From Fibrobacter succinogenes (GTDB taxonomy: Bacteria; Fibrobacterota; Fibrobacteria; Fibrobacterales; Fibrobacteraceae): DNA of 40,267 nt. Both the position numbers and the translations under genes were made by a program. A model generated the notes under the pieces. The model searched no databases, was not told the origin of the DNA, and worked only from the letters and a program-made list of their open reading frames with translations. Numbering within the stretch: the first letter of the stretch is position 1; every line of letters starts with the position of its first letter. Where the stretch lies: NCBI GenBank assembly GCA_902768715.1, contig CACXMH010000034.1, positions 1-40,267 on the forward strand. Reading direction: 5' to 3'. Of this stretch, positions 13,463-31,286 are shown piece by piece.

Positions 13463-14095
13463 ATGGCCAAGACCAGCGCAAAGAAAACAGCAAAGAAGGA
13501 TTCTGCCAAGAAAGGCACCCAGACCAACATGTGGACCGGCCGTTTTGCTAGCGGCATGGCTCAGAGCATGGTAGACCTGAGCTTCAGCCTGCAATTCGAC
13601 GCCGAGCTCATCGAAGAAGACATCGAAGGCAGCATCGGCCACGGCAAGGGTCTGGTGGAATCCGGCGTGCTCAGCAAGGCCGACTACAAGAAGATTTGCG
13701 ATGGTTTGGCCAGCATCCTCAAGGATTACAAGGCCGGCAAGAACCTGTGGAAGGAATCCGACGAGGACATCCACATGGCCGTGGAACGGGTGCTCACCGA
13801 ACGCATCGGGGCCCTCGGCAAGAAGATCCACACGGGTCGCAGCCGTAACGACCAGGTCTGCACGGACTTCAAGCTTTACATGCGTCACCGCGCCGCCGAA
13901 ATCCGCGCCCTCGAAGTGAGCCTGATGGAAACGGTGCTGGACCTCGCAAAGAAATACTTCGGCAAGATGATGCCGGGCTACACCCACCTGCAGCAGGCAC
14001 AGCCGATTTACTTCAGCCATTACCTGATGAGCATGTTCTTTGCCGTGACACCCACCTGCAGCAGGCACAGCCGATTTACTTCAGCCATTACCTGA
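13463..14095 (+). pseudogene. argH: Argininosuccinate lyase, 5' fragment (frame-shifted by tandem duplication)
   Basis: ArgH splits argininosuccinate into arginine and fumarate. This part begins with an unusual Lys/Ala-rich extension (MAKTSAKKTAKKDSAKKG) before the normal start MWTGRFASG, and contains TGRSRNDQVCTDFKLYMR and MMPGYTHLQQAQPIYFSHYL. At 14048 a second copy of the preceding 68 bp begins; since 68 is not a multiple of three, the frame is lost and stops at a TGA (14093-14095). Removing one copy gives an intact 1440-bp gene of 479 residues. The stop overlaps the ATG of the next fragment (TGATG), so reinitiation could in principle occur. Confidence 0.88.
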
Positions 14096-14116
14096 TGAGC
14101 ATGTTCTTTGCCGTGA
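13980..14116 (+). repeat. 68-bp perfect tandem duplication within argH
   Basis: Bases 13980-14047 are repeated at 14048-14115 with no difference (the following A is also shared). The unit codes for the conserved stretch THLQQAQPIYFSHYL and on to FFAV. The perfect identity means it is either very recent or an assembly artefact. Confidence 0.95.
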
Positions 14117-15047: not shown

Positions 15048-15962
15048 CTACAGCTGCTCTACGGTGAAACCCTTGGAACGCAGAATGTCAATGACGTTCT
15101 CGTGATTGCCCGCCAGGTGAGCTGCGCCTACGACAACGAAGATATTACGGTCTTGTGCTAAGAAATCTGCAATGCTTTCTGCCATCTTACGGTTACGGGA
15201 GTAATATATGCGCTCGTTGATTTCTTTTTTGAACAGGGAATCTGCAGGACTCAACTGAGCTGTATCCAAATTCATGTTTACGCAAAAAAGCGAGTCATTC
15301 CCCGCTTTCCAGGCACGCATCATGCCCCTGGTGGCAGAATCAAGAAAGGCCGTTTCACGAAGGATAGTTTCTAGATAGAAAATTCCCAACGAATCCGAAT
15401 CGCCGTCGCCGGTAAATACAAAAACCTGTTCCTCTACCGTTTCCAGCGAGACGACATTTTTGCCGGCGTCACGGGCTCTTTCAAGAAAATGGACATCTAT
15501 TCCCAATTTTCCGTCATAGCCCAAGCGCATAATTCCAACAGCAGTCACGGTCATCCCCGCCGACAGCGGCTTGTAGCGACTAAACGAACCTAATGGCAGT
15601 TTCCACGCCAGACAAAGGCTATCAAGAGATGCCGAAACTCTTGCAGGAATGACACTATCGAGAACCCTTCCATCATGAAAAAAGCCTTGCTGTTCTGTCA
15701 TCAAGGCGATTTGCCGCGAAATGGAATCGTCGGTCGCGTCTATTTCTACCGCAAGCTCTTCCGAGCGATCAAATGCGTTTTCGATGATGGTATCTAGCGG
15801 ATAAAAGGAAGAATCCGCAAAATGCAGACTTCCCAAAAGGTAAACGCTCGAGTTGGAATCGGAAACCTTCCAAAAGAGGTGTTTTCTCCCTTCATTCTCT
15901 ATAAAAGAACACCCTGCCAACAGCAGTAAGGCACAAACAAACAGAACAGAAAAGCCCTTCAC
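15048..15962 (-). CDS. TraB/GumN-family lipoprotein
   Basis: A 304-residue predicted lipoprotein (lipobox LLAGC, Cys18) of the TraB/PrgY/GumN family, whose eukaryotic relatives (TIKI) are metalloproteases. Diagnostic motifs are YLLGSLHFAD with GSLH at 44-47, EELAVEID, GIDVHFLERARDAGKNVVSLET, and the C-terminal FVVVGAAHLAG with GAAH at 279-282, followed by the usual GFTVEQL ending. The two GxxH motifs would bind the metal. It begins 7 bp after the unknown helical gene and is the last gene of the seven-gene motor operon. An envelope protease role is inference. Confidence 0.8.
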   Translation of the reverse strand: MKGFSVLFVCALLLLAGCSFIENEGRKHLFWKVSDSNSSVYLLGSLHFADSSFYPLDTIIENAFDRSEELAVEIDATDDSISRQIALMTEQQGFFHDGRVLDSVIPARVSASLDSLCLAWKLPLGSFSRYKPLSAGMTVTAVGIMRLGYDGKLGIDVHFLERARDAGKNVVSLETVEEQVFVFTGDGDSDSLGIFYLETILRETAFLDSATRGMMRAWKAGNDSLFCVNMNLDTAQLSPADSLFKKEINERIYYSRNRKMAESIADFLAQDRNIFVVVGAAHLAGNHENVIDILRSKGFTVEQL

Positions 15963-15969
15963 TTTTCAG

Positions 15970-16623
15970 CTACTTCTTATCTTGAGGGACAAGCCGTTCC
16001 ACTACGCGGAACAATTCATTATAAATTTCCAGGAAATCCTCAATCCAGATGGGATCCCGCTCTCCGACGATATGCATCGTCTCTTCCAGGGTATGCTGGG
16101 CGTTATAAGGTCCGACCAGCGAACCCTCGGGCAAGGCTCCGCTCCTGTAGGCCTGTGCCGCCGAAACGCGGGCACGGAAACTACGACGAAGGCGTGTAAT
16201 GAGGGAGCTTCGCAAAGCCAGCAGTTCGTCGTAAGCCTCCTGGAAATTTCCGTCGGCTATGGACTGTTCAGCCAATTTCAGGCGACGACCGATGGATTCG
16301 CGCTCCATGGGCGGCACCAGCATGCCCTTGGCAGCGAGAGTGCCCCGAATCTGGGCAATTGTCTTTTCCAAAAAATCCTTGCCCCAAAAGCACATAGGAG
16401 CGGCTGCATTTTCGGCAACCCTGTTTTCTCGAATCTTATGGGCAGATAGCCAACGATCAAGCTTGTCCAGCACGATTCCCGCCTCGGGAGTGCGCTCGAT
16501 GGCCAAATAGTCCTGGGCACGGGAAAGCAGGTTTTCCGCATAGACCATACGCCAATGAGGGAACTTTCCGCTCTTGCGGAGAGCATCCATGTTCTGGCGG
16601 ATTGTGTCTAGACGAATTTGCAT
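15970..16623 (-). CDS. Unknown helical protein, fourth component of the X-motA-motB-Y set
   Basis: A 217-residue protein with no signal peptide and no membrane segment; it is charged, predicted almost all-helical and therefore probably cytosolic. No family was recognised. Repeating features are the Arg-rich stretch SSLITRLRRSFRARVSAAQAYR (about res. 129-150) and an acidic C-terminal helix (IEDFLEIYNELFRVVERL). It starts 4 bases after the MotB-like stop and ends 7 bases before the TraB-like gene. Its place next to a motor pair recalls the accessory genes of Zorya systems, but no sequence similarity to a named Zorya protein can be claimed. Confidence 0.65.
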   Translation of the reverse strand: MQIRLDTIRQNMDALRKSGKFPHWRMVYAENLLSRAQDYLAIERTPEAGIVLDKLDRWLSAHKIRENRVAENAAAPMCFWGKDFLEKTIAQIRGTLAAKGMLVPPMERESIGRRLKLAEQSIADGNFQEAYDELLALRSSLITRLRRSFRARVSAAQAYRSGALPEGSLVGPYNAQHTLEETMHIVGERDPIWIEDFLEIYNELFRVVERLVPQDKK

Positions 16624-16627
16624 AGGA

Positions 16628-17266
16628 CTACTTCTTTTCTGTCATCTGGAGCGGGGTCACGCCGATTTCCACACGACGGTTCAGGCTGCGGTGTTCCTCG
16701 CTGTCGTTAGGATACTTGGGCTGGTGCTCGCCAAAGCCTGCCGCAAAGAGGCGCTCCGGCGGGAATCCCTGTGCCACAAGAGCCTTGACCACGCTCACCG
16801 CACGTTCCGTAGAAAGGTTCCAGTTAGAAAAATTCGGGGAGTTTTTCACCGGCAAGTCGTCGGTAAAACCGCTCACCATGATTACATCGCCCGGAGCCAT
16901 AGCGTCCAAAAGTCCCTTGCTGATTCCTTCAATGACCTTGATACCTTCGGCGGTCAGGTTCGCCCCGTTGATGGGGAAAAGGAAGCTGGCCTGAATCTGG
17001 ATCTTGCCGTCTTCGAGAGCGATAAGCCCCTGCTCGATAGAAGACTTGAGGCTCTGGGAAAGGAGCGCGTTGCGTTCCGCCGCAATTTTCCGCATTTCCT
17101 CCTGGCAAGAGAGCACTTCCTCTTCGGTACGGGTCAGGTCTTCCGCTTTCTGCTCCTTCAACGTGGCCATGGCCACGAAGGCAAGGATAAACAGGGACAC
17201 CAGGGCCACGCCCAGGTCCGTATAGGCCATCCAGGGATTGTGATTGTCTTCGCGACGAAATCCCAT
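16628..17266 (-). CDS. MotB/ZorB-like protein with OmpA peptidoglycan-binding domain
   Basis: A 212-residue inner-membrane protein. A single membrane segment (res. about 12-34) begins PWMAYTDLGVALVSLF and carries Asp17, in the position of the proton-binding Asp of MotB. A short coiled linker (res. 38-80) leads to an OmpA-like domain (res. about 85-205): VSGFTDDLPV, NWNLSTERAVSVVKALVAQG, FAAGFGEHQPKYPND and NRRVEIGV, the peptidoglycan-binding core. Length and layout fit MotB- or ZorB-type stators. It follows the MotA-like gene after 3 bases, so the two are surely co-translated and probably form a 5:2 ion-driven complex. No flagellar gene is nearby. Confidence 0.88.
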   Translation of the reverse strand: MGFRREDNHNPWMAYTDLGVALVSLFILAFVAMATLKEQKAEDLTRTEEEVLSCQEEMRKIAAERNALLSQSLKSSIEQGLIALEDGKIQIQASFLFPINGANLTAEGIKVIEGISKGLLDAMAPGDVIMVSGFTDDLPVKNSPNFSNWNLSTERAVSVVKALVAQGFPPERLFAAGFGEHQPKYPNDSEEHRSLNRRVEIGVTPLQMTEKK

Positions 17267-17269
17267 CTA

Positions 17270-18844
17270 CTAGCCCTCCACCTTAGGCTGCTCGGCCTTG
17301 TGGTTTGCACGCTGAACCTGTTCCATGACTTCCAGCAAGATTTCCTGGGTCTTGACAGCGTTTTCCATAAGCACTTCGGAGGCACGCTCGTGGAAAGCTT
17401 CCAGGGACTGGTTCAAGTGTTCCACAAAGTTGTCTTCTTCCTCGTGCTCGGCAGTGTCGCCAGAAAGCTTTTCCAGAATGGTCTCGAGGCCTGCGCGGAG
17501 CATTTCCAGGTTGGCGCTGAGTTCGCTCTGGTTCACCCGCATCAGTTCGGCGGTCTCCACCAGGTTTCCACCCAGGGCGTCGGTAGCTTCCTTCTCCTTC
17601 ACTACCCGGTTGTCGATGCTTTCGGTAAGGGCCTTCTGGGCCTCAAGCAACACGGCAGAAGATTCCGAAAGTTTCTGGAAGGCATCCAGAATGTCGGAAG
17701 AAAGGGCCGAAAGCTTTTCGGAAACGGACTTGCTGAGTTCGGCGGAACCCGCCTGGGCTTTTTCGGCCACCTGGAGCGCCACCGTCTTGAGGGTTTCCAG
17801 ACCCTCTTTTTGGGACTGGACTCCGGCAGAAGCTTCTGTCGAAAGCTTGTCCATAAAGGACTTCCACTGTTCCGAAGACTGTTTGACCTGGTCGGCCACG
17901 GCACTTGCGATGCTCTTCGAAGAGGCGTTCATGGCGTTTTCCGTCGCGCTGGCTACGGCACCGAGCTTTTCATCGAGCTTGGTAGAAATCGAACCCATCG
18001 CTTTTTCAGTTGTGCTGGCCACAGCGCCCAACTTCTCATCCAATTTCGCAGAAACAGAATTCATGGAGTTGGACACCGCACTCTCCAAAGATTCCACAGT
18101 CTTTGCAAGCCCCTGCTGCACAGAGGCGGCCACGGCTGACAGATTCTTCTCTACAGACTGGAACAGGCGTTCCAGTTCCGTCTTTTCCATATCGGTGGCA
18201 GAAGCGGCGGCGTCTTCGCCCTGCAATTCAAGAGTGAGACTGTCCAGGCGGGCCAAGAAACGCTCCCGGGCACCGAGCAGCAGACTACGGCTCGCGTTCA
18301 GCACCAAGGCCGCAAAGAGACCGCAAAGGCTGGTCCCGAAAATGCCCTTCATATTCTGGAACAGCACCTGGATGGTATCAAGAGTGCCTTGAGTCGTAGA
18401 GTTGTCGATAGCACCGCCGGCTGTTGCCACAGAATACATAAGACCAAAGAACGTACCCATCAGGCCGAGCAAAATCACCGTACCGCTGGAACTGCGGGGA
18501 GCGGGCAGGCCCGTACTGTTAGAAAGAACCTCGTAGGCGATAGGCGAATCGATTCGGATACCCTTCTCTACCAGATGGCGGGCCATTTCCAGGCGGCGAG
18601 CCACCACGCCGTCGCCGCTCACCCTGAAACCCCTGCCGCTTTCGCAGGCGGCAATCTGTTCCTCTTCGGCGCTAATCTTGCGGGCCGCGGCCATAGACAT
18701 GAACTGTTCCGCCAGGAACACCACGAAAATGGCGGCCATGATAATCCAGCCAAACAGCGGAGCGCCAAAATACATGGCTCCGCAGGCAAGGGCACCAATG
18801 CCCACCAGGGTAAGCAGGAGAATGGAATTGAAAGCGTTCTTCAT
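17270..18844 (-). CDS. MotA/TolQ/ZorA-like motor protein with long coiled-coil tail
   Basis: A 524-residue membrane protein. Transmembrane segments are about 8-27, 31-50, 121-141 and 163-187; the third carries GLMGTFFGLM and the fourth FGTSLCGLFAALVL, the core motifs of MotA/TolQ/ExbB channels. Residues 200-520 form a long helical tail, an arrangement typical of ZorA and unlike flagellar MotA. The tail holds a direct repeat of about 22 residues (KLDEKLGAVAS twice, at 263-285 and 286-307) and is rich in Ala, Ser, Lys and Glu. The start overlaps the upstream stop (ATGA), with AAAGGTGA as ribosome-binding site. Ions probably drive rotation of this pentamer round the MotB-like partner (family knowledge). 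Confidence 0.85.
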   Translation of the reverse strand: MKNAFNSILLLTLVGIGALACGAMYFGAPLFGWIIMAAIFVVFLAEQFMSMAAARKISAEEEQIAACESGRGFRVSGDGVVARRLEMARHLVEKGIRIDSPIAYEVLSNSTGLPAPRSSSGTVILLGLMGTFFGLMYSVATAGGAIDNSTTQGTLDTIQVLFQNMKGIFGTSLCGLFAALVLNASRSLLLGARERFLARLDSLTLELQGEDAAASATDMEKTELERLFQSVEKNLSAVAASVQQGLAKTVESLESAVSNSMNSVSAKLDEKLGAVASTTEKAMGSISTKLDEKLGAVASATENAMNASSKSIASAVADQVKQSSEQWKSFMDKLSTEASAGVQSQKEGLETLKTVALQVAEKAQAGSAELSKSVSEKLSALSSDILDAFQKLSESSAVLLEAQKALTESIDNRVVKEKEATDALGGNLVETAELMRVNQSELSANLEMLRAGLETILEKLSGDTAEHEEEDNFVEHLNQSLEAFHERASEVLMENAVKTQEILLEVMEQVQRANHKAEQPKVEG

Positions 18845-19740
18845 CGTTCACCTTTTGTTTCAAATAAATTTAACTGACCGCGGTTGAACCCGCGCAAGAA
18901 CAGGGACCACTTGTCGCGGTACCAGTCGATTACCTGGAGCGTAAGGCCCCGAGCGTAATCGCAAAAATCATCGGTAAAGGCCAAAAAGCCGTTTTCGTAG
19001 GCGTAATGCGGGTTCCAGAGCCTGCCCACGTTGCGGGCACAGCCTGCCGCCGTGCGGTAATACTTGGGCGCCCCCTTCACATTGAAGGCTGCCGCAAAGC
19101 GTTTCTTGGCAAGGGTGTTCAAGGAACTGCGCAAAGAGGTTACCAGGGCATTCTCTTTTTCACGGAGGCCCTCTTCCAGACAGGGCAAGAGTTTGCTCAC
19201 CGCATCTACGGCACTCTCGCCATGCCAGTACTTGCAGAGTTTTTCCTGCAACTGCATCACGCGGCCATGCATACGCACAAACAAGGGCTCGGCATCGCTT
19301 ACCAGCAGGTGGATGGTCGCCGAATAAAAGGCGTTAATGTCTTGCTTGTTGTTCTTGACCGCAAGGCACCAACCGTTCTCGTCGTGGTGCAAAAAGTCAC
19401 CGCCCTCCAAAAGCAGGCGCAAAACCTCGTCGGTAGAAAAACGCTGCATCCACTTGGCGCGGAACTCGTCGTAAAGTTTGCTCGCATCGGCCACTATCTG
19501 GGGAAAAGAGGACTCGCAAAGTTTCCAGGCCGTAGCACTATAGCTTATCAGTTCGGAGCTAGAAACCGCCTCTTCTCTATTGTTCAAAAGGGCGTCCAGG
19601 TGCTCGAAAAGCACAATGGACCAGGTCACCATCATGGACTGTGAAAGGGTCGCCACCATGGCAGGGTGATCGGCATGCACCGACAAGTGCATACTTGTCC
19701 CCGTCATCTTGCGAATGGAGCGGCGAAAAGAATCTTCCAC
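18841..19740 (-). CDS. Unknown helical protein with C-terminal QLNLF clamp-type motif
   Basis: A 299-residue protein not recognised as a known family. It has no signal peptide; it looks helical, with many Trp and Cys residues, and is probably cytosolic. Its last residues, NRGQLNLFETKGER, contain QLNLF at 289-293, the same pentapeptide known as the beta-clamp binding site of E. coli UmuC. It begins 10 bp after the beta-helix gene and overlaps the MotA-like start by 4 bp. The gene order X-A-B-Y resembles, from memory, the four-gene Zorya type III layout, in which two proteins of unknown function flank ZorA/ZorB. The function is unknown; the clamp link is a motif-level inference. Confidence 0.7.
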   Translation of the reverse strand: MEDSFRRSIRKMTGTSMHLSVHADHPAMVATLSQSMMVTWSIVLFEHLDALLNNREEAVSSSELISYSATAWKLCESSFPQIVADASKLYDEFRAKWMQRFSTDEVLRLLLEGGDFLHHDENGWCLAVKNNKQDINAFYSATIHLLVSDAEPLFVRMHGRVMQLQEKLCKYWHGESAVDAVSKLLPCLEEGLREKENALVTSLRSSLNTLAKKRFAAAFNVKGAPKYYRTAAGCARNVGRLWNPHYAYENGFLAFTDDFCDYARGLTLQVIDWYRDKWSLFLRGFNRGQLNLFETKGER

Positions 19741-19750
19741 TGGCTACCCC

Positions 19751-20470
19751 TTAAAATCCCGTTTCAATCCTCTGCCATACGCTACGGCTCACCCGCTTGC
19801 GGCTACCCGCCAGCTCTTCTGATTCCTTGCGCACATCGGATTCCAGATTGCCCTTGATCAGCGCCAAATCACCCTGGAAATCCCCGCCCGCCTCAAGGAA
19901 CAGGCCATAGACATTGTTAGAAATCTTGCTGTCCAAGGATATCACCTTGCCGCCACGGACAGAAAGGGCAAAACGATTCCGACTGAAATCGCAATGAGAT
20001 AGCACTAGCTCGGGCACATCATCTACCCACAGGCCGTAGTAGTTATTCACAAAGCGCACATTCTCGAAAACCCCACGGGTGCGGAACACGGAATTGCGGA
20101 AGGCGTTTTCTACCATCAGGTTCTTGATTTCAAAAGAACCGTTACCCGAAATGATATGCAGGCCGTTCCAGCTTTCGCTGGAGTCAGCACTTTTGAACAC
20201 GATAGGCTTGGCCTCTGTACCCCGGATGTCCACCGGGCCCCGGAGCATCAGCTTGGCGTATTCGCCCATAAGGACCGTGACCCCAGGTTCTACGGCAAAG
20301 GTATCCGAAGAGGAAAGTACCACGCCTTGCTCCAGGATGTAGGGGCTATCCTTTTCCTGCAAAAGGAGCTTGCCGTTTTCCACTTGCGGAAACGGCATCT
20401 CCCCCGCAAGGGCAGCCACAAACGCCCAAAGAAGCGGCAGGACTATCTTACTTGGCCTGGTCAATTTCAC
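19751..20470 (-). CDS. Secreted right-handed beta-helix protein
   Basis: A 239-residue exported protein: an N-terminal hydrophobic segment (IVLPLLWAFVAALAGE), then beta-helix turns of about 20-24 residues rich in G, N, V and I (ILEQGVVLSSSDTFAVEPGV, FEIKNLMVENAFRNSVFRTRG, FENVRFVNNYYGLWVDDVPE, LSHCDFSRNRFALSVRGG). No pectate-lyase catalytic residues are evident. It is related in layout to res. about 155-380 of the large protein at 26056. The frame opens with GTG at 20468-20470, overlapping the upstream lipoprotein by 23 bp, but the TTG at 20462-20464 is better spaced from GAGGGG and may be the real start. It is the second gene of the motor operon. Confidence 0.7.
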   Translation of the reverse strand: MKLTRPSKIVLPLLWAFVAALAGEMPFPQVENGKLLLQEKDSPYILEQGVVLSSSDTFAVEPGVTVLMGEYAKLMLRGPVDIRGTEAKPIVFKSADSSESWNGLHIISGNGSFEIKNLMVENAFRNSVFRTRGVFENVRFVNNYYGLWVDDVPELVLSHCDFSRNRFALSVRGGKVISLDSKISNNVYGLFLEAGGDFQGDLALIKGNLESDVRKESEELAGSRKRVSRSVWQRIETGF

Positions 20471-21290
20471 CCCTCAGCTTGATTTTCTGGATAATGTGCA
20501 TGTTGGGCAACAACTGGGCCGCAATCACGTCGTTTACGTCGATGTGTCCCGAAATCTCCAAGTTGCCGGACTGCACCACCCCGTGAGTAATGTCGAATAG
20601 GATAGACCCCGAACCCACGATAAAGCCCTTGCTTTCCATGCGCACGTTGGCAGTGGTGTCCGGAATTTCCTTGTACTTGATGTTCATGCCGATTTTCGCC
20701 ATCTGGACTCCGTCGTGCACGAACACATCCTCAAGTTTGAAGGCCTTGTAAACAGTTGTCATTGCGCCGTTGCCAGGAATCTCCACGGAACGCTCCCACA
20801 CGTCACCCAAGTTCACAGGGCTTCCCGGCAGAACGGGCTGGATTTTCATGAACACCTTCATCAGGTTCAGTTCCTCGGTCCCCGGTTGCAGGGCCTGATC
20901 CTCTACGGAGGGGTCGCTCATGGAACCATCCCCCATCATCTTGAACTGGAAATGCTGGGACGAAAGGTACTTCTCGATATAGCGGAACTCCTCGACGGAG
21001 CGCTTGTCGCTCTTGTAGTCCACCGTATCAATCTTCATCTCGAAACGGGCGGAACCGTTGTCGAATGCCACCGTCTGGCTCAGGGTGGACTGGGCGTTCA
21101 AGCGGGTCTCCATAGACTCGGGAGATTCGTGAGTGGAATCCTCGGGGGCAAACACATTCAGGCTCGCTTCCAGGGTGAATTTCTGGACCGGAGCGTTCTG
21201 GGTGTTAAAAGCCAAAGAAACGCTATTGCTATCGCAAGAACAGAGCCACAGGAGCGCCGTGGACAGGATCGAAAACTTTACGAAATTCAT
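20448..21290 (-). CDS. Putative lipoprotein, first gene of the motor operon
   Basis: A 280-residue predicted lipoprotein: MNFVKFSILSTALLWLCSC gives a lipobox with Cys19. The rest is beta-rich without a recognised catalytic motif (PVNLGDVWERSVEIPGNGAM, KGFIVGSGSILFDITHGVVQ); it resembles the loose class of envelope proteins with a repeated substrate/ligand-binding beta fold. It opens a co-directional run of seven genes down to 15048 with gaps of 10 bp or less. A hairpin and a heptamer array lie just upstream. AAGGT immediately before the ATG is a weak ribosome-binding site. Confidence 0.65.
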   Translation of the reverse strand: MNFVKFSILSTALLWLCSCDSNSVSLAFNTQNAPVQKFTLEASLNVFAPEDSTHESPESMETRLNAQSTLSQTVAFDNGSARFEMKIDTVDYKSDKRSVEEFRYIEKYLSSQHFQFKMMGDGSMSDPSVEDQALQPGTEELNLMKVFMKIQPVLPGSPVNLGDVWERSVEIPGNGAMTTVYKAFKLEDVFVHDGVQMAKIGMNIKYKEIPDTTANVRMESKGFIVGSGSILFDITHGVVQSGNLEISGHIDVNDVIAAQLLPNMHIIQKIKLRGEIDQAK

Positions 21291-24177: not shown

Positions 24178-26055
24178 ATGTCATTTTCAAGTCGTTTTAA
24201 AATTGTCGCCATAGCACTTATGCTGGCGGTACCTTTTTCTTATGCCGCCAAGAATACCTCGGGCAAGGTCCGTTCCGTCATCGGTGACGTGACCACACAG
24301 AAAAAGTCCGAAGGCAACTGGGTTCCACTCCGCGTAGGGGCAAAGGTCAAAGAAAAAGACGTTATCCGAACCCTGGTAGAATCCCAGGCCATTGTGGCCC
24401 TACCCGATGGCAGCACCATCTCGGTAGAAGAAAACTCCCTAGTGGAATTTTCCCAACTGGTATCCGAGGACGGGGTCCAGACGGCCATGACCGACATCAA
24501 GAGCGGAAAGGTCCGTTTTGACGTGCAGAAACAGACCAGCAAGGAGAGTTCCTTCATGTTCAAGACCGGGACCGCCACGGCGGCCATTCGCGGTACTGAC
24601 GGAGCCATCGGTTTGAGTTCCAAAGGCACACCCATCGCTTCCCTCCGTAATGGTAAGCTTGAACTCACTGTATTCAACCAAAAAGTGGAAATTAAGGGCG
24701 GCGAAACCATCATTACCACCGAAAAAGAAATCATGGTTATGGAACTTTCCTCCTCCGGCGACCTGGAATTCTTAAATGAAATTGATGCCATGCTCAGCGA
24801 TACCTCTATGACCGAAGACAAACTGAAAGCGGCTATCCAGGCAAAGGATATCGAATACAAGGCAAAACAGACGGCCGCAAAGGATTCCCTCAAGTGCTTC
24901 TTTGAACCCCTCCCCGACATCATCTACACTCCAACCGTAACCATCAAGGGAACCTGCCCTGCCGGTGTGGGCGTCGAAATCAGTGGAGAAAGAATCGAAT
25001 CGACCGGAGAACCGCTACAGTTTACCCCCAACTGGGCACCCAGTGCCTTTGGCGAAAAGAAATTCCCCGTGGTCTGCTACTCCGGTAAGGTAAGCTTTGA
25101 CTGCGCCGGCCTGACGACCCTCTACATGCAACAGCCCGACACGACAGTCTCGGATTCAGGCAAAACCGCAATGAAACCGTTCAGTGTGACAACGGCCTCG
25201 CCTCTTGTTGTTTGTGAGACCGGCTCGGCCGTTATAGAAGGTGAATTTGACCCAGCAGATACGGCAGCAACCCTATTTGTCAAACTTGGCAGCTACACCT
25301 CTCCCAACCTGGTTCCCCTAAGCGCAGAAGGGAAATGGACTCATACGATTACCATCAATGACCAGAAGGGCAACTGGAACGAAAGATACGCTACCGTCGA
25401 ATTCAACGGAGCTTCGGGCAATGTTAGTGCACGCATCGACCTCGCTATCGATAAAACCTGCAGCGCCATCAACCTGGGGCGTCCTGCACTCCTGTTCCAG
25501 GGTTCAGACCCCATCCGCTGCGAAGCCCGTGTTTACATTTCGGGCATCAAGGACGACATTGTCATTCTCTCTACCGAAAGAGACAATACACCTCTCAAAG
25601 AAACCTATTTTGACAAGAACGCCTTCTCCACCATCAAGCTCAAGCAGGGACTCCATGACTACACTTGGACAGCTCGAGACCAAGCAGGGAACAAATCTGA
25701 AATTAGAAAGAAACTTGGATGCTTCTCAAGTAGTGGCGCTGCCATTCATGTTCGTCACGGCAATAGGGAACGTTTGCGCGTGCCTCCACCACCCAATGGG
25801 GTCTCCAAAAAACTGGCAAAGGACTTGCGTTTCGAAGTTACTGGAATTCAGCGAGACCCCAATCAAATCAAGAGCGTTTCCATCAAGAGAAACGGCGTGG
25901 AAATTCAGAAATATGAAGGCGAACTGAGTATCGACGATACCAAGTTCAGTGAGCGCGTAGAACTCGAATATGGCAAGATAACCACATTCGATATCGAGGT
26001 CGTGCTAAAAGACGGCAGAAATCTTACAGCCAAAAAGGTTTACGAGGTACGCTAA
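24178..26055 (+). CDS. Exported FecR-domain protein
   Basis: A 625-residue protein with a signal peptide (MSFSSRFKIVAIALMLAVPFSYAA). A FecR domain lies at about res. 30-180: GKVRSVIGDVTTQKKSEGNWVPLRVGAKVKEKDVIRTLVES, LPDGSTISVEENSLVEF, SSFMFKTGTATAAIRGTDGAIGL. A helical segment (about 195-245) follows, then several Ig-like beta domains with paired Cys (for example VTIKGTCPAGVGVEISGERI). It lacks the transmembrane anti-sigma part of true FecR, so it is probably an envelope scaffold rather than a sigma regulator. Its stop is directly followed by the ATG of the next gene, so the two form an operon. Confidence 0.8.
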   Translation: MSFSSRFKIVAIALMLAVPFSYAAKNTSGKVRSVIGDVTTQKKSEGNWVPLRVGAKVKEKDVIRTLVESQAIVALPDGSTISVEENSLVEFSQLVSEDGVQTAMTDIKSGKVRFDVQKQTSKESSFMFKTGTATAAIRGTDGAIGLSSKGTPIASLRNGKLELTVFNQKVEIKGGETIITTEKEIMVMELSSSGDLEFLNEIDAMLSDTSMTEDKLKAAIQAKDIEYKAKQTAAKDSLKCFFEPLPDIIYTPTVTIKGTCPAGVGVEISGERIESTGEPLQFTPNWAPSAFGEKKFPVVCYSGKVSFDCAGLTTLYMQQPDTTVSDSGKTAMKPFSVTTASPLVVCETGSAVIEGEFDPADTAATLFVKLGSYTSPNLVPLSAEGKWTHTITINDQKGNWNERYATVEFNGASGNVSARIDLAIDKTCSAINLGRPALLFQGSDPIRCEARVYISGIKDDIVILSTERDNTPLKETYFDKNAFSTIKLKQGLHDYTWTARDQAGNKSEIRKKLGCFSSSGAAIHVRHGNRERLRVPPPPNGVSKKLAKDLRFEVTGIQRDPNQIKSVSIKRNGVEIQKYEGELSIDDTKFSERVELEYGKITTFDIEVVLKDGRNLTAKKVYEVR

Positions 26056-29000
26056 ATGAAAAAACTCTTTAAAAGTACCGTTGCCACATTCTTTTTGGGA
26101 ACAGCCTTTGTTTTCGCCCAAGAACCTGCACCTGCAGTCGCAGTTCCCACACAGCCAACCACCCAAGCTTCCGAAGCTCCCGCTCCTGAACCGGGACAAC
26201 AGGGAGCAGCCGCCACCGTAGCAGAGGCTCCTGTTCAAGAGCCTATTCCAACAGCATCCGAGCCCCAGCCAGTAGCTACAGAAGTTGCCCCTGCACAAAC
26301 CGAGGCTGCACCCGTCGCCGAGGCTCCCGCCGATGCTGTTCCCGCACCAGTTGAATCCACCCCTGTGGCCGAAGCGCCTGCAGATGTTTCAGCCGAACCC
26401 GTAACCGAAACCGCAGAAGCGGTTCCCGCAACAGCGCAACCCCCTGTCGAGGCAGCTCCTGTGGCAGCCCCAGTACCTGTTGCAGAACCAGCACCCGAAC
26501 CTGTAAATACTCAACTTGCAGGAACTGAACTTCAGGGAGAACTCCACGGATTCCTGAAAGCGGACAAATCCCCGTACCTAGTAAATGGAATAGTTTCTGT
26601 CGCAGCCAATACAGTATTGGTCATTGAGCCGGGAACTACAATCATGTTCACCAAGGGTAGTTCGCTGATGGTGAATCAAGGACAGCTTGTGGTAGCGGGT
26701 TCCGCCACATCCCCAGTAGTGTTCCGTTCCGCCATGAGTGTTCCAGCTGCAGGCGACTGGGCAGGAATTACAGTCATTGGAGAGAACAACTCCGAAATTC
26801 GCAATGCCCAAATCCTCAACGCCACCAACGGCCTTGTCGTCGAAAATGGCAACCTGAAAATTCAGAATTCCCTTGTAGAAGGGTCTAGCGGTTATGGTAT
26901 TTATGCCCGTAATGCATCTATTGTCGTAAGCGACGGGCAGTTCAAGAACAACCAGGTTGCCCTGAACCTTTCCCACTACGCCCAAGGCGAAATAGAGCGT
27001 TCCAACTTTGAGGGAAACAATGTTGCCCTGCTGAATTCCAAGCTTTCCAAAAGCAACATTTCTTCCTCGAATTTCAGAAATAACGGTACAGCCGTAGTCA
27101 ATATGGGCAACACCCTTATCGACTTGAACAAGGCTTCCGTAGAAGACAATACCGTTGGTATAGCCACGGCAGAAATCCTTGCGCCGGAAGTTATGGAAAA
27201 CGCCAAAAACAACAAAGAAAATTTCAGTGACAAGGCAGAAGAAACCGCGGCAACCCTCCCCCCCGAGCCGGAAGTACCAGGCACAGAACGCAAGAACCTT
27301 AACCCCACCGACAAGGCCTATGTTGTATTTGATACAGAAACAGACTCAGATTCTACGCAAAAAAGCTGGTCAATCCTTGGCAACTTGATGCTTGGCTGGA
27401 ATTATCATTATGTCCGCACCCGTACCCATCATAGCGACACGCCGGAAATCATGGGAACGGATACCATTCTCAAGGGAGACCGTTACAAGAACTATTTCCA
27501 GGTACCAGGCTTTGCCGAAAACGCTTCGGTGTATTTGCTGATGATTTCTCCGGAAGGCAAAACTATCGAATTTACCATGGACGCCACTTCGGATTCTTGG
27601 AACAAGTTCTCTCCAAACCCTGTAACACTACGCTATAACGACAGCTACAACAGCGTCAACTTGGGTGATATCCAGATGATGGGCGGAGACATCTACATGT
27701 CCGGCATGCCCTTATTCGGTGCTGAATACACGCTCTCCCTACTCAAGAATAATGCAGATCAACCCCTGTTCCAGCTAGAAGGATTCTTTGGCGAAGCCAA
27801 ACGTTCTCTAGTCCCCCACAACCGCCATCCCTATTTCTACAACGACTATATTGACGATGGCGAAGCCCAAGCACAGCGCCTCGCTTACGGCGGATTCCTG
27901 AAATGGGCTCCTGTACGCAGGTTTGATGCCAAGGTGGGTGCAATTTACGCCAATGACGAACTTGAAGACCCACTGCTTCGCGATGGGGCAAAGGCGACCA
28001 CCCTTACCACCGACCCGTTGCAAGAAGCATTTACCATGTATGCCGAAGGAAACTGGCTGTTTTTCCCGGGCGACATCGAGCTGAACGGGCAGATTGCCGT
28101 CGGACGTGCCGACACCACTGATGCCATACGCCAGAGAGCCATCAATAAGGTTTTCTCCAATGCAGGTCTGAATACATCCAGTTACACACTTCTCCGTAAA
28201 TTGATGCAGAGTGAAAGTCAGATTGACTGGCTGACCAATGCCGAGTTAGAAGAAATTTTCGGTGACAACACCAACATGACAAAAGGCCAGATGCTACAGA
28301 AATTGCACGAACTGGTGAAAGAAGCGAAGAAGGTCCAAAAAGAGGTCGAAAGCGACCGCGATGATGACCGCGTGCTAGGCCAGCACTGGGGTAGCCAGAA
28401 CTTCGCTCTTGGAGCATCCTTGAACTGGAGTATCAACAGAACAAGAATTGCAGGTCATTTTAAGTACATTGGCGAAGAGTTCTACAGCGCCGGTTCACCG
28501 GACCAGCTTTCCAACACCCGCGAATTCGGAGCTAGCCTAGAACAGGACATCAAGAAGTTCTGGATTCTTGGATTGGAATACCAAATCAATGTAGAAAATG
28601 CGGCCCACGGAAGAAAGAAAAACCTGGCAGGACTTGCAGAAGGCACCCATTTCGGTTTGGTTTCCGATGACGAAAGCGACTGGTTCGAAGCTCACGAGTT
28701 GGACAACGACCGTACGAAATACATTCATAATTTTGGTTTGGGCAACACCTTTACCGTCAACCCCAGAGTCCAAATCACGGCGGGCTACAACCTAGAATAC
28801 AGAGACCAGTACCGTCCTTTACAGCTCCGGGGCAACTACATGCTGGACGATGGAGTTTACAGGGATGATTTCTTTACCAAGGGCAAGGGGTCAAAGGTTG
28901 CCATCGTGAACGGCGATACCGTCATGGTGGATTCCGCACGCTGGGCAAACTACATGTCTATGGCGGACGAGCCTTACCTCGCCTCCAAATTTGAAGAAAG

Positions 29001-29589
29001 ACTCTACAAGCAAAGCATCAAGGCCGGGATATCCTTCAAAGCTGCCCAGTCCGTGTTCAAAATCAACGGCCGTTGGACACTGCGTACAGACGATTCCAAG
29101 TTCCACAAGGACAGCTTAATCGATGAAATGGATATGGATTTGGAAGACACGACCTGGGCAAAACTGGGTTATTACTACGGTGGAAGTGACTACTTTGAAC
29201 AGAGCTACCCGTTAAGCATCACCACAACCTTGAAGAGCATGCAAAACCTCTTCCAGGTGACTTACCGCCTGAAATCTTATACTCGTGATGAGATGGCCGA
29301 AGACGAAATCACCGTAGAAGACGAATTAGAAATTCCCTTCATGAATCGTTTCATGGTCCTTTCCTTGAATGGTCAGTTCCGCTACATGCTTACGGAATGG
29401 ACCGAATCAGACGAGGACTTCGACGAAGAAGAAATGGACGTGCTTGGGAAACTCAACCTGCGGTTCAACCACAGCAAGCACCTGTACAGTGACTGGTACG
29501 TAGGTTCGGCCATCTATTATCGTCCGGACTACCTGTCCAACGAATACAAGGACATCTACGGCGGAATCAACCTGAACTACGTGTTCTAA
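26056..29589 (+). CDS. Large outer-membrane protein: Ala/Pro-rich linker, beta-helix and C-terminal barrel
   Basis: A 1177-residue exported protein. Signal peptide MKKLFKSTVATFFLGTAFVFA; then about 125 residues (23-150) of Ala, Pro, Glu, Val and Thr (repeats like APVAEAPAD), a rod-like linker reminiscent of TonB or OprF spacers; then a right-handed beta-helix (res. about 160-385: VLVIEPGTTIMFTKGSSLMV, GSSGYGIYARNASIVVSDGQ); then a long region rich in aromatic, alternating beta segments ending INLNYVF, which looks like an outer-membrane barrel with a terminal Phe. The gene follows the FecR-domain gene with no gap. No catalytic motif is seen. It may be an adhesin or surface display protein (inference). 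Confidence 0.75.
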   Translation: MKKLFKSTVATFFLGTAFVFAQEPAPAVAVPTQPTTQASEAPAPEPGQQGAAATVAEAPVQEPIPTASEPQPVATEVAPAQTEAAPVAEAPADAVPAPVESTPVAEAPADVSAEPVTETAEAVPATAQPPVEAAPVAAPVPVAEPAPEPVNTQLAGTELQGELHGFLKADKSPYLVNGIVSVAANTVLVIEPGTTIMFTKGSSLMVNQGQLVVAGSATSPVVFRSAMSVPAAGDWAGITVIGENNSEIRNAQILNATNGLVVENGNLKIQNSLVEGSSGYGIYARNASIVVSDGQFKNNQVALNLSHYAQGEIERSNFEGNNVALLNSKLSKSNISSSNFRNNGTAVVNMGNTLIDLNKASVEDNTVGIATAEILAPEVMENAKNNKENFSDKAEETAATLPPEPEVPGTERKNLNPTDKAYVVFDTETDSDSTQKSWSILGNLMLGWNYHYVRTRTHHSDTPEIMGTDTILKGDRYKNYFQVPGFAENASVYLLMISPEGKTIEFTMDATSDSWNKFSPNPVTLRYNDSYNSVNLGDIQMMGGDIYMSGMPLFGAEYTLSLLKNNADQPLFQLEGFFGEAKRSLVPHNRHPYFYNDYIDDGEAQAQRLAYGGFLKWAPVRRFDAKVGAIYANDELEDPLLRDGAKATTLTTDPLQEAFTMYAEGNWLFFPGDIELNGQIAVGRADTTDAIRQRAINKVFSNAGLNTSSYTLLRKLMQSESQIDWLTNAELEEIFGDNTNMTKGQMLQKLHELVKEAKKVQKEVESDRDDDRVLGQHWGSQNFALGASLNWSINRTRIAGHFKYIGEEFYSAGSPDQLSNTREFGASLEQDIKKFWILGLEYQINVENAAHGRKKNLAGLAEGTHFGLVSDDESDWFEAHELDNDRTKYIHNFGLGNTFTVNPRVQITAGYNLEYRDQYRPLQLRGNYMLDDGVYRDDFFTKGKGSKVAIVNGDTVMVDSARWANYMSMADEPYLASKFEERLYKQSIKAGISFKAAQSVFKINGRWTLRTDDSKFHKDSLIDEMDMDLEDTTWAKLGYYYGGSDYFEQSYPLSITTTLKSMQNLFQVTYRLKSYTRDEMAEDEITVEDELEIPFMNRFMVLSLNGQFRYMLTEWTESDEDFDEEEMDVLGKLNLRFNHSKHLYSDWYVGSAIYYRPDYLSNEYKDIYGGINLNYVF

Positions 29590-29612
29590 GGTTTTCCGTC
29601 GGCGCAAGGGCC

Positions 29613-31286
29613 ATGTACTCTTACTGTTTTCACGAGCTTCCCGTTGCCCTAGAAAAAAAAGGCAAGTTTCGGGAAGCTCTTGCCAAAGAGCTGAAACTCC
29701 ACCCAGAACAGATTTTCGATCTGGAGGTGGAACGTTTTTCGCTGGACTCCCGCCGGAAAGGTTTCCCCCACTGGTCTTATAATGTCCGTTTCGATGTTCA
29801 GCAAAAACTGAAGACCTTCGGAAACAACGCCAAGGGGCTCGTAGAAGCGGTTCCGGCAAAACAAGACCCGAAAGAGGCAGCCCTGGCAGGCACCGTGCAA
29901 ATGCCCGAGCATGTAGATATTGTGGGTGCAGGTCCTTCGGGGCTCTGGGCGGCCCTGCACCTTTTACGCAAGGGCTATTCCGTAGATCTTTACGAGCAAG
30001 GCAAGCCCGTAGAGGAACGATTCCGCGACATACGCCGGTTCTTTGTGGACCGAAAGTTCAATGCCCGCAGTAATGTCCTCTTTGGCGAGGGCGGTGCAGG
30101 AGCCTTCAGTGACGGCAAGCTCAACACCAGGAGCAGAAACGCATTCTCGGAACAGGTTCTGCACGACATGGTGGATTTCGGGGTGGACCAGGATGTTATC
30201 ACCTTCGCGAAGCCCCACATCGGAACAGACAGGCTTGTGCTGATGCTCCGGAAAATCCGTGCAGAAATTGCCCGACTGGGTGGGCAAATCCATTTTTATT
30301 CGGCCCTGACAGATGTAGAAATCCAGAACGGTCGCATTTCTGCCATCAAGATTGAAAACGACGCCGCACCGCAAGGTGCGTGGAAGCGCTGCGAAGCGCT
30401 GGTCCTTGCCACTGGGCATTCTTGCAGGGACATTTACCAGATGCTGCAGGCCCGGGGCGTAGCCCTTGAAAGCAAGGCTTTCGCCATGGGCGTTCGTGTG
30501 GAACACCCCCAGGAGCTGATAAACCTGCGGCAGCTGGGTAGAGGTGTCGATACACGCCTCACCGGAGCTGCGGAATATTTTCTCGCCACACCGACACTGA
30601 ACAAAACCTGCAGTGCCTACAGTTTCTGCATGTGCCCTGGCGGCGTGCTGGTGCCCTGCGCTTCTGAACCAGGGACACTTGCCACCAACGGCATGAGTTA
30701 CAGCCGTCGAAACGGCCCACTTGCCAACGGAGCCATCGTGGTTCCCGTAGAGGCCAGCGAAAAACTCTTTGGTGGACTGGAATTCCAGAGAAAAACGGAG
30801 GCGGACGCTTTCAATGTAGGCGGAAAGAACTACAGTGCTCCGGCACAGACCATCAAGGCCTTCATGGAACACCGGCTGGACAAAAAGTTACCGAAATCCA
30901 CCTACCCCTGCGGGATTGTACCCGTCAACACCTGGGACTGGCTGGACAAGCGGATTTGCCAGAGCCTTTACGAAGGTTTTTTGAACTTTGACCGAAAAAT
31001 TCCCGGATTCATTGCAGAAGGCCTCATTGTGGCTCCCGAAACCAGGACCAGTTCTCCCCTGCGAATCACCCGAGACAGCGCTACCCTAGAAAGCGTGAAT
31101 ACCAAGGGATTGTTCGTGCTGGGCGAAGGGGCCGGCTATGCAGGCGGGATTGTCACCAGCGCCGCCGACGGAGTGAGACTGGCGTACTACGCGAAGAATT
31201 TAAAGGACACAATTCAGAATTCAGATTTCGGAATTCGGAATTGTTTTAATGATAATAACTCCGAATTCATAAATCCGAAATCATAA
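29613..31286 (+). CDS. FAD-dependent NAD(P)-utilising dehydrogenase-like protein
   Basis: A 557-residue cytosolic flavoprotein of the family often called uncharacterised FAD-dependent protein. The N-terminal 90 residues (MYSYCFHELPVALEKKGK) precede the dinucleotide-binding motif VDIVGAGPSGLWAALHL (101-117), then EERFRDIRRFF, the family hallmark FGEGGAGAFSDGKLNTR, and the C-terminal FAD motif GLFVLGEGAGYAGGIVTSAADG. The substrate is unknown. The ATG has AAGGG just upstream. About 25 C-terminal residues (DTIQNSDFGIRNCFNDNNSE...) are encoded by a heptanucleotide array, so the normal family end is probably around LAYYAKN. Confidence 0.85.
   Translation: MYSYCFHELPVALEKKGKFREALAKELKLHPEQIFDLEVERFSLDSRRKGFPHWSYNVRFDVQQKLKTFGNNAKGLVEAVPAKQDPKEAALAGTVQMPEHVDIVGAGPSGLWAALHLLRKGYSVDLYEQGKPVEERFRDIRRFFVDRKFNARSNVLFGEGGAGAFSDGKLNTRSRNAFSEQVLHDMVDFGVDQDVITFAKPHIGTDRLVLMLRKIRAEIARLGGQIHFYSALTDVEIQNGRISAIKIENDAAPQGAWKRCEALVLATGHSCRDIYQMLQARGVALESKAFAMGVRVEHPQELINLRQLGRGVDTRLTGAAEYFLATPTLNKTCSAYSFCMCPGGVLVPCASEPGTLATNGMSYSRRNGPLANGAIVVPVEASEKLFGGLEFQRKTEADAFNVGGKNYSAPAQTIKAFMEHRLDKKLPKSTYPCGIVPVNTWDWLDKRICQSLYEGFLNFDRKIPGFIAEGLIVAPETRTSSPLRITRDSATLESVNTKGLFVLGEGAGYAGGIVTSAADGVRLAYYAKNLKDTIQNSDFGIRNCFNDNNSEFINPKS

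What the first reader, a model, noticed from the sequence alone, without database searches (positions are those of the whole stretch)
15048..21290. Seven-gene operon around a MotA/MotB (ZorA/ZorB-like) motor with envelope partners
Seen: seven minus-strand genes with gaps of 10 bp or less and several overlaps: lipoprotein, secreted beta-helix protein, unknown helical ORF (X), MotA-like with long helical tail, MotB-like with membrane Asp17 and OmpA domain, unknown helical ORF (Y), TraB/GumN-like lipoprotein. Known: Zorya anti-phage systems pair ZorA (MotA-like with long tail) with ZorB (OmpA-type) plus cytosolic effectors; the X-A-B-Y order recalls, from memory, Zorya type III. Inference: either a divergent Zorya-like defence system with extra envelope parts, or an undescribed ion-driven envelope machine (for example in surface assembly or adhesion). 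The lack of mobile genes nearby favours a conserved cellular role.
Basis: partly seen in the sequence, partly recalled or inferred. Interest (0 to 1): 0.8.

Follow-up and report, generated by a model that had tools for sequence, protein, structure and literature searches.

The report
Zorya-like motor operon, motor optional
A Fibrobacter operon encodes a flagellar-motor-like ion channel plus two helical partner proteins and is a deep sister of the type III Zorya phage-defence system, but nearly every member of its bacterial class carries it and some relatives have lost the motor while keeping the partners, which suggests a conserved cell function rather than an optional immune weapon.

Summary
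The seven ORFs are real and tightly coupled. The conserved unit is four genes, X-A-B-Y. B (MotB-like) groups with type III Zorya ZorB (bootstrap/SH-aLRT 100/97) and A matches ZorA3 (profile E=8e-18). X and Y match no curated family, but are remotely similar to ZorF (E=0.009) and ZorG (E=4e-4), in the same gene order. So this is a deep sister of type III Zorya rather than a recognised member. A lipoprotein and beta-helix gene belong to the locus in most motor-bearing genera of the family; the TraB/GumN gene does not (0 of 20 sampled genus genomes).

(1) X occurs in all 68 good-quality genomes of the class and in none of 42 genomes from other classes of the phylum. In 20 of 20 genus genomes the operon sits in one fixed chromosomal place, and B diverges as slowly as neighbouring tadA. 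(2) The motor is optional. Three other families, and one genus nested inside the motor-bearing family, keep X, Y and A's membrane helix and tail tip but lack A's channel core and all of MotB.

Best reading: a membrane-tethered cytoplasmic X/Y assembly that can be coupled to a rotary ion motor, with a conserved cellular role. Defence is not excluded.

The parts
18841..19740 (-). X (299 aa), soluble all-helical protein; remote relative of ZorF/DUF3348
   Evidence: in all 68 good-quality genomes of the class; AlphaFold2 pLDDT 86, pTM 0.82, long-helix bundle; hhalign vs ZorF E=0.009-0.015 and ZorF top-ranked ORF in 20 of 31 type III loci vs 4 of 31 for a reversed profile
17270..18844 (-). A (524 aa), ZorA-like: four TM segments plus long coiled cytoplasmic tail
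   Evidence: profile vs ZorA3 E=8e-18
18710..18823 (-). A residues 8-45: TM1-TM2, the membrane anchor kept (as one or two helices) in motorless relatives
18275..18484 (-). A residues 121-190: motor core with TM3/TM4 and the GTFFGL / FGTSLCGL motifs; deleted in motorless relatives
17309..17557 (-). A residues 430-512: conserved tail tip (NQSEL...HERASEVLMENAVKTQEILLEV), kept in all three architectures
16628..17266 (-). B (212 aa), MotB/ZorB3-like: one TM segment and a periplasmic OmpA peptidoglycan-binding domain
   Evidence: ZorB3 2e-43; clade with ZorB3 100/97
17216..17218 (-). B Asp17, the putative ion-carrying membrane aspartate
   Evidence: invariant in the alignment of Fibrobacter-type B and ZorB3
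16676..16981 (-). B OmpA domain (residues 96-197)
   Evidence: PF00691 1.1e-16
15970..16623 (-). Y (217 aa), soluble helical protein; remote relative of ZorG/DUF2894
   Evidence: hhalign vs ZorG E=4e-4 to 8e-4
16003..16122 (-). Y C-terminal signature around GPYN (residues 168-207), aligned to the GPLNS motif of ZorG
19751..20470 (-). beta-helix secreted protein; locus partner in most motor-bearing genera of the family, not class-wide
20448..21290 (-). DUF6263-like lipoprotein; adjacent in the family and in one motorless genus (g15), missing beside X in others
15048..15962 (-). TraB/GumN-family lipoprotein; co-directional neighbour, not a conserved part
   Evidence: PF01963 2e-56; absent in 20 of 20 sampled genus genomes, present in one close relative

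Best explanation
X-A-B-Y encodes a deep sister lineage of type III Zorya. Supported by sequence: A and B form a ZorAB-type ion-driven motor pair (B anchored to peptidoglycan by its OmpA domain, Asp17 in the channel position), A's long coiled tail runs into the cytoplasm and ends in a conserved tip, and X and Y are soluble helical proteins remotely related to ZorF and ZorG. Shown by comparison: the lasting core is X + Y + membrane-anchored tail tip of A; the motor (A's TM3/TM4 core plus all of B) is a detachable module that was lost at least once. Inferred: X and Y bind the tail tip and form a membrane-tethered cytoplasmic assembly; where the motor is present, ion flow rotates or flexes the A rod and so regulates or works on that assembly. 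Inferred: because the set is single-copy, class-wide, vertically inherited and slowly evolving, its main role here is a conserved cell-envelope or cytoplasmic-organisation job rather than accessory phage defence. The identity part (deep sister of type III Zorya) is about 0.85 likely; the housekeeping-role part about 0.55.
For: Kinship: same order as DUF3348-DUF802-OmpA-DUF2894 loci; among the best MotB relatives, the loci that carry the full neighbouring gene set are either Fibrobacter or four-gene type III loci; B+ZorB3 clade 100/97 against 41 other MotB-type rows; profile matches lie on the diagonal: B-ZorB3 1.5e-41, A-ZorA3 8e-18, Y-ZorG 4e-4 to 8e-4, X-ZorF 0.009-0.015, all off-diagonal pairs weaker. 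Core status: X in 120 of 168 phylum genomes; every class member of at least 90% completeness has it, the six class members without it are 62-88% complete and also lack B, and 42 genomes of other classes have none. Fixed neighbourhood in 20 of 20 genus genomes, median identity to the window B 83.5% vs tadA 83.1%. X not found in viral contigs or plasmids. Motor optional: families f3-f5 have A with one or two TM segments and no B ortholog; genera g5/g8 inside family f1 have a 168-258 aa A made of one TM + spacer + tail tip and no B ortholog in 13 genomes; the RpoB tree places g5 inside f1 (100/98), with f2 and the other f1 genera carrying the motor.
Against: No experiment on these genes. X-ZorF similarity is weak and Y's rank test has a high composition background (reversed Y profile also tops ZorG in 13 of 31 loci). 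The A tail tip is not demonstrably homologous to the ZorA3 tip. Physical binding of X and Y to the tip is not tested. A type III Zorya from Stenotrophomonas did reduce phage plaquing in E. coli (PMC8565338), so a defence role cannot be dismissed, and class-wide conservation does not exclude a core immune function. No neighbour gives a specific cellular pathway.
Confidence: 0.55

Rival explanations
1. A bona fide but divergent type III Zorya anti-phage system that became fixed in the class: X/Y sense infection or act as effectors, and the motor signals or recruits them.
For: Gene order and homology to type III; a type III system reduced plaquing of at least one phage tested in E. coli (PMC8565338); in Zorya I/II the ZorA tail, peptidoglycan binding and ion flow are all needed and the effector ZorE is recruited by ZorAB (PMC11890865).
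Against: Class-wide single-copy vertical inheritance in a fixed housekeeping neighbourhood; no X in viral contigs or plasmids; [quoted passage not shown] no nuclease or other catalytic domain found in X or Y.
Confidence: 0.3
2. An ion-driven envelope machine in which the beta-helix protein and the lipoprotein(s) are the working surface parts, for example in adhesion or surface assembly.
For: Lipoprotein and beta-helix genes precede X in the motor-bearing genera of family f1 that were examined, except one without the beta-helix, and in 20 of 20 genus genomes.
Against: The second-family (f2) locus with a motor has neither gene beside X; motorless genus g15 keeps the lipoprotein, while g13, g5 and g8 lack both. 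They are also among the faster-diverging genes of the block (median 58% and 65% vs 80% for X and 83% for B). TraB/GumN is not conserved.
Confidence: 0.1
3. An ordinary flagellar, Tol or Exb stator with unrelated neighbours.
For: B has a MotB-type OmpA domain and its closest solved sequences are MotB/PomB.
Against: The B tree separates it from the other MotB-type rows; the genus's other MotA/ExbB proteins are distinct; no flagellar or Tol genes belong to the conserved block in 20 genus genomes.
Confidence: 0.03

Closest known systems
Type III Zorya (ZorF-ZorA-ZorB-ZorG; DUF3348-DUF802-OmpA-DUF2894)
   Same: Gene order, MotA-type A with long coiled tail, MotB/OmpA-type B in one clade with ZorB3, remote X-ZorF and Y-ZorG similarity
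   Different: X and Y are not recognised by PADLOC or Pfam ZorF/ZorG models; distribution is class-wide and vertical; motor absent in several lineages; family-specific lipoprotein and beta-helix genes
Zorya types I and II (ZorAB plus ZorCD or ZorE)
   Same: ZorAB-type motor with long cytoplasmic tail
   Different: No ZorC, ZorD or ZorE homologue; ZorB1/ZorB2 profiles match B far less well (3e-19, 2e-5) than ZorB3 (2e-43)
Flagellar stator MotAB/PomAB
   Same: Ion-channel pair with a peptidoglycan-binding B subunit
   Different: Outside the other MotB-type B rows in the tree, no linked flagellar genes, tail and X/Y partners
TolQR / ExbBD / AglRS-type generic ion transporters
   Same: MotA/TolQ/ExbB-type channel fold
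   Different: B carries an OmpA domain; gene partners differ; A is not detected by the MotA_ExbB Pfam model

Membership tests
Type III Zorya | ZorA: MotA-like channel with long cytoplasmic tail | tested here: met
   profile vs ZorA3 E=8e-18; motor region 7e-11
Type III Zorya | ZorB: TM Asp plus OmpA domain, of the ZorB3 clade | tested here: met
   PADLOC ZorB3 2e-43; sister to all ZorB3, joint clade 100/97
Type III Zorya | ZorF = DUF3348 protein | tested here: not met
   no PADLOC match for X and no Pfam DUF3348 match for X or its 19 relatives; only remote profile similarity, E=0.009-0.015
Type III Zorya | ZorG = DUF2894 protein | tested here: not met
   PF11445 finds 0 of 151 relatives; no Pfam DUF2894 match for the Y family; remote profile similarity, E=4e-4
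Type III Zorya | gene order F-A-B-G | tested here: met
Type III Zorya | anti-phage activity | not testable with these tools
   needs plaque assays
Defence systems in general | patchy, mobile, island-borne distribution | tested here: not met
   class-wide, fixed locus, not found in viral or plasmid collections
Flagellar MotAB | linked flagellar genes and a B sequence within flagellar MotB | tested here: not met
Tol/Exb systems | TolR/ExbD-type B subunit and linked tol, pal or tonB genes | tested here: not met
   B has an OmpA domain; no such genes in the conserved block

The most novel reading that the evidence does not exclude
An ancient, vertically inherited bacterial machine whose essential part is a membrane-tethered tail tip holding two new helical proteins, onto which a rotary ion motor can be added or removed; type III Zorya would be its sister, so the ZorF/ZorG module may have a core cellular function and defence may be a secondary or derived use.
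Probability: 0.45. Interest if true: 0.78.

Novelty: new variant of a known kind. Interest (0 to 1): 0.62.

Why it matters
Type III Zorya is classed as a defence system but the roles of ZorF and ZorG are unknown. Here nature has run the deletion experiment: relatives keep ZorF-like X, ZorG-like Y and the ZorA-like tail tip while discarding the motor, and a whole bacterial class keeps the set as a core trait. This makes a direct question testable: what do ZorF, ZorG and the tail tip do without ion flow, and is defence the original job of this motor family?

Tried and rejected
Curated families for X and Y (Pfam, NCBIfam, PADLOC): nothing. Fold searches of the X and Y models against the PDB: no match with E <= 0.001. 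Homology of the A tail tip to the ZorA3 tip: not significant (score 15 vs shuffled maximum 16). TraB/GumN as a system member: rejected. First RpoB tree used antisense ORFs for some rows and was discarded; one search is the corrected one. Papers on Fibrobacter proteomics gave no certain hit on this operon; FSU_0286, listed as 'Fimbriae-associated domain protein' with an ExbB/MotA motif (PMC6851124), may be A but was not verified. The promoter/terminator scan gave nothing usable.

Full report
OBSERVATION. The seven minus-strand ORFs exist at the stated coordinates, with spacings of 10 bp or less and two overlaps. The organism is a Fibrobacter: the best named match to B, 99% identical over the whole protein, is an uncultured Fibrobacter MAG. 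B is clearly MotB/OmpA-like. A is MotA-like but so divergent that Pfam MotA_ExbB misses it; PADLOC ZorA3 and ZorB3 models pick up A (4e-7) and B (2e-43). X and Y match no family in Pfam, NCBIfam or PADLOC, and no Pfam family is shared by their relatives.

WHAT BELONGS TO THE UNIT. In 20 of 20 sampled genomes of the genus the block is tadA - lipoprotein - beta-helix - X - A - B - Y. The TraB/GumN gene is in none of these 20 and was found in one nearer relative, so it is a neighbour rather than a part. In other genera of the same family the lipoprotein and beta-helix usually precede X; in other families only X, A and Y persist reliably.

KINSHIP TO TYPE III ZORYA. Type III loci read as DUF3348-DUF802-OmpA-DUF2894, the same order as X-A-B-Y. 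Among the best MotB relatives in a genome-wide scan, the loci that carry the full neighbouring gene set are either Fibrobacter or four-gene type III loci. The B tree puts the Fibrobacter proteins beside all ZorB3 sequences with 100/97 support, outside 41 other MotB-type rows. Profile comparison gives B-ZorB3 1.5e-41, A-ZorA3 8e-18, Y-ZorG 8e-4 (4e-4 with more sequences) and X-ZorF 0.015 (0.009), while off-diagonal comparisons and shuffled controls score lower. As an independent check, the X profile ranks ZorF first among about 43 ORFs in 20 of 31 type III loci, against 4 of 31 for the reversed profile; Y ranks ZorG first in 22 of 31, but its reversed profile also does so in 13. X-ZorF and Y-ZorG homology is therefore likely but not proven. 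By the curated definition (DUF3348 and DUF2894) this is not a type III Zorya; it is a deep sister that is built alike.

DISTRIBUTION. An X profile finds the gene in 120 of 168 genomes of the phylum. All class members of at least 90% completeness have it, the six class members without it are 62-88% complete and also lack B, and the 42 genomes outside the class have none. Nearly every genome has one copy. X was found in neither viral contigs nor plasmids. In the genus, B has diverged as little as its neighbour tadA (median identity to the window protein 83.5% and 83.1%), X almost as little (80%), whereas A, Y and the envelope genes diverge faster (58-65%). Such a pattern is typical of a core cellular trait and unusual for a defence system.

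THE MOTOR IS OPTIONAL. Three architectures occur. (i) Family f1 (most genera) and f2: A with TM1-4, long tail and tip, plus B. (ii) Families f3, f4 and f5: A keeps one or two N-terminal TM helices, the coiled tail and the tip, but lacks the TM3/TM4 channel core, and no B ortholog is found in the genomes (best generic OmpA hits E no better than 6e-18, against 1e-40 or better for intact true orthologs). (iii) Genera g5 and g8 inside family f1: A shrinks to 168-258 residues, that is, one TM helix, a proline-rich PKIEIPKIE-type spacer in several, and the tail tip; no B ortholog in 13 genomes. X-A-Y order and mostly tight spacing remain. A corrected RpoB tree places g5 inside f1 (100/98) with f2 next (100/99), so the motor was lost at least once; whether its absence in f3-f5 is loss or the ancestral state is open (minimum two changes of state). 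What selection has kept is X, Y and the membrane-anchored tail tip.

MECHANISM. Supported by sequence: channel pair, invariant Asp17, peptidoglycan-binding domain, coiled tail, conserved tip, soluble helical X and Y (X model pLDDT 86, pTM 0.82; Y pLDDT 83, pTM 0.43). From work on Zorya I/II (PMC11890865): ZorA tails bundle into a rod, ion flow is important for function, and the ZorE effector is recruited by ZorAB. Inferred here: X and Y sit on the tail tip; when a motor is present its rotation acts on or gates this assembly; when it is absent the tip is a passive tether. No neighbour or fold identifies the cellular process. I favour a conserved envelope-linked or cytoplasmic-organisation role (about 0.55), with fixed defence as the main rival (about 0.3), since a type III Zorya was protective in E. 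coli (PMC8565338).

LIMITS. MAG incompleteness, no complex modelling, no experiments, weak X-ZorF statistics, and tip-ZorA3-tip homology not significant. The prevalence of type III in Proteobacteria, which would show whether it too is core, could not be measured.

Noticed in passing
window 13981-14116: argH is broken by a perfect 68-bp tandem duplication (13981-14048 and 14049-14116) that shifts the frame; two close relatives (L221, L224) align as a single copy, so an assembly artefact is likely.
   Followed up: partly
L148 7974-8672, L162 5514-6020, L163 6519-7061, L164 6513-7130, L168 7183-7860: Motorless A proteins of genera g5/g8 carry tandem PKIEIPKIE-type repeats between the single TM helix and the tail tip, perhaps a stiff spacer replacing the coiled rod.
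   Followed up: no
L147 9227-9724 (-): A FlgB-like flagellar gene lies near the motorless X-A-Y locus of genus g5, so these relatives may be flagellated, unlike Fibrobacter; a link between flagella and motor loss was not tested.
   Followed up: no
L052 9624-10061, L054 6140-6544: Y is reduced to 134-145 aa in two members of genus g13, keeping mainly the C-terminal part with the GPYN signature.
   Followed up: no
G000:C28:3059-7309: RpoB of the Fibrobacter family splits into two profile matches with about 100 extra residues near position 550, suggesting a lineage-specific insertion.
   Followed up: no
window 24178-31286 (+): FecR-domain protein (625 aa) followed by a 1177-aa ORF without a significant Pfam match and a further 557-aa ORF, tightly spaced; a possible surface or secretion gene cluster.
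   Followed up: no
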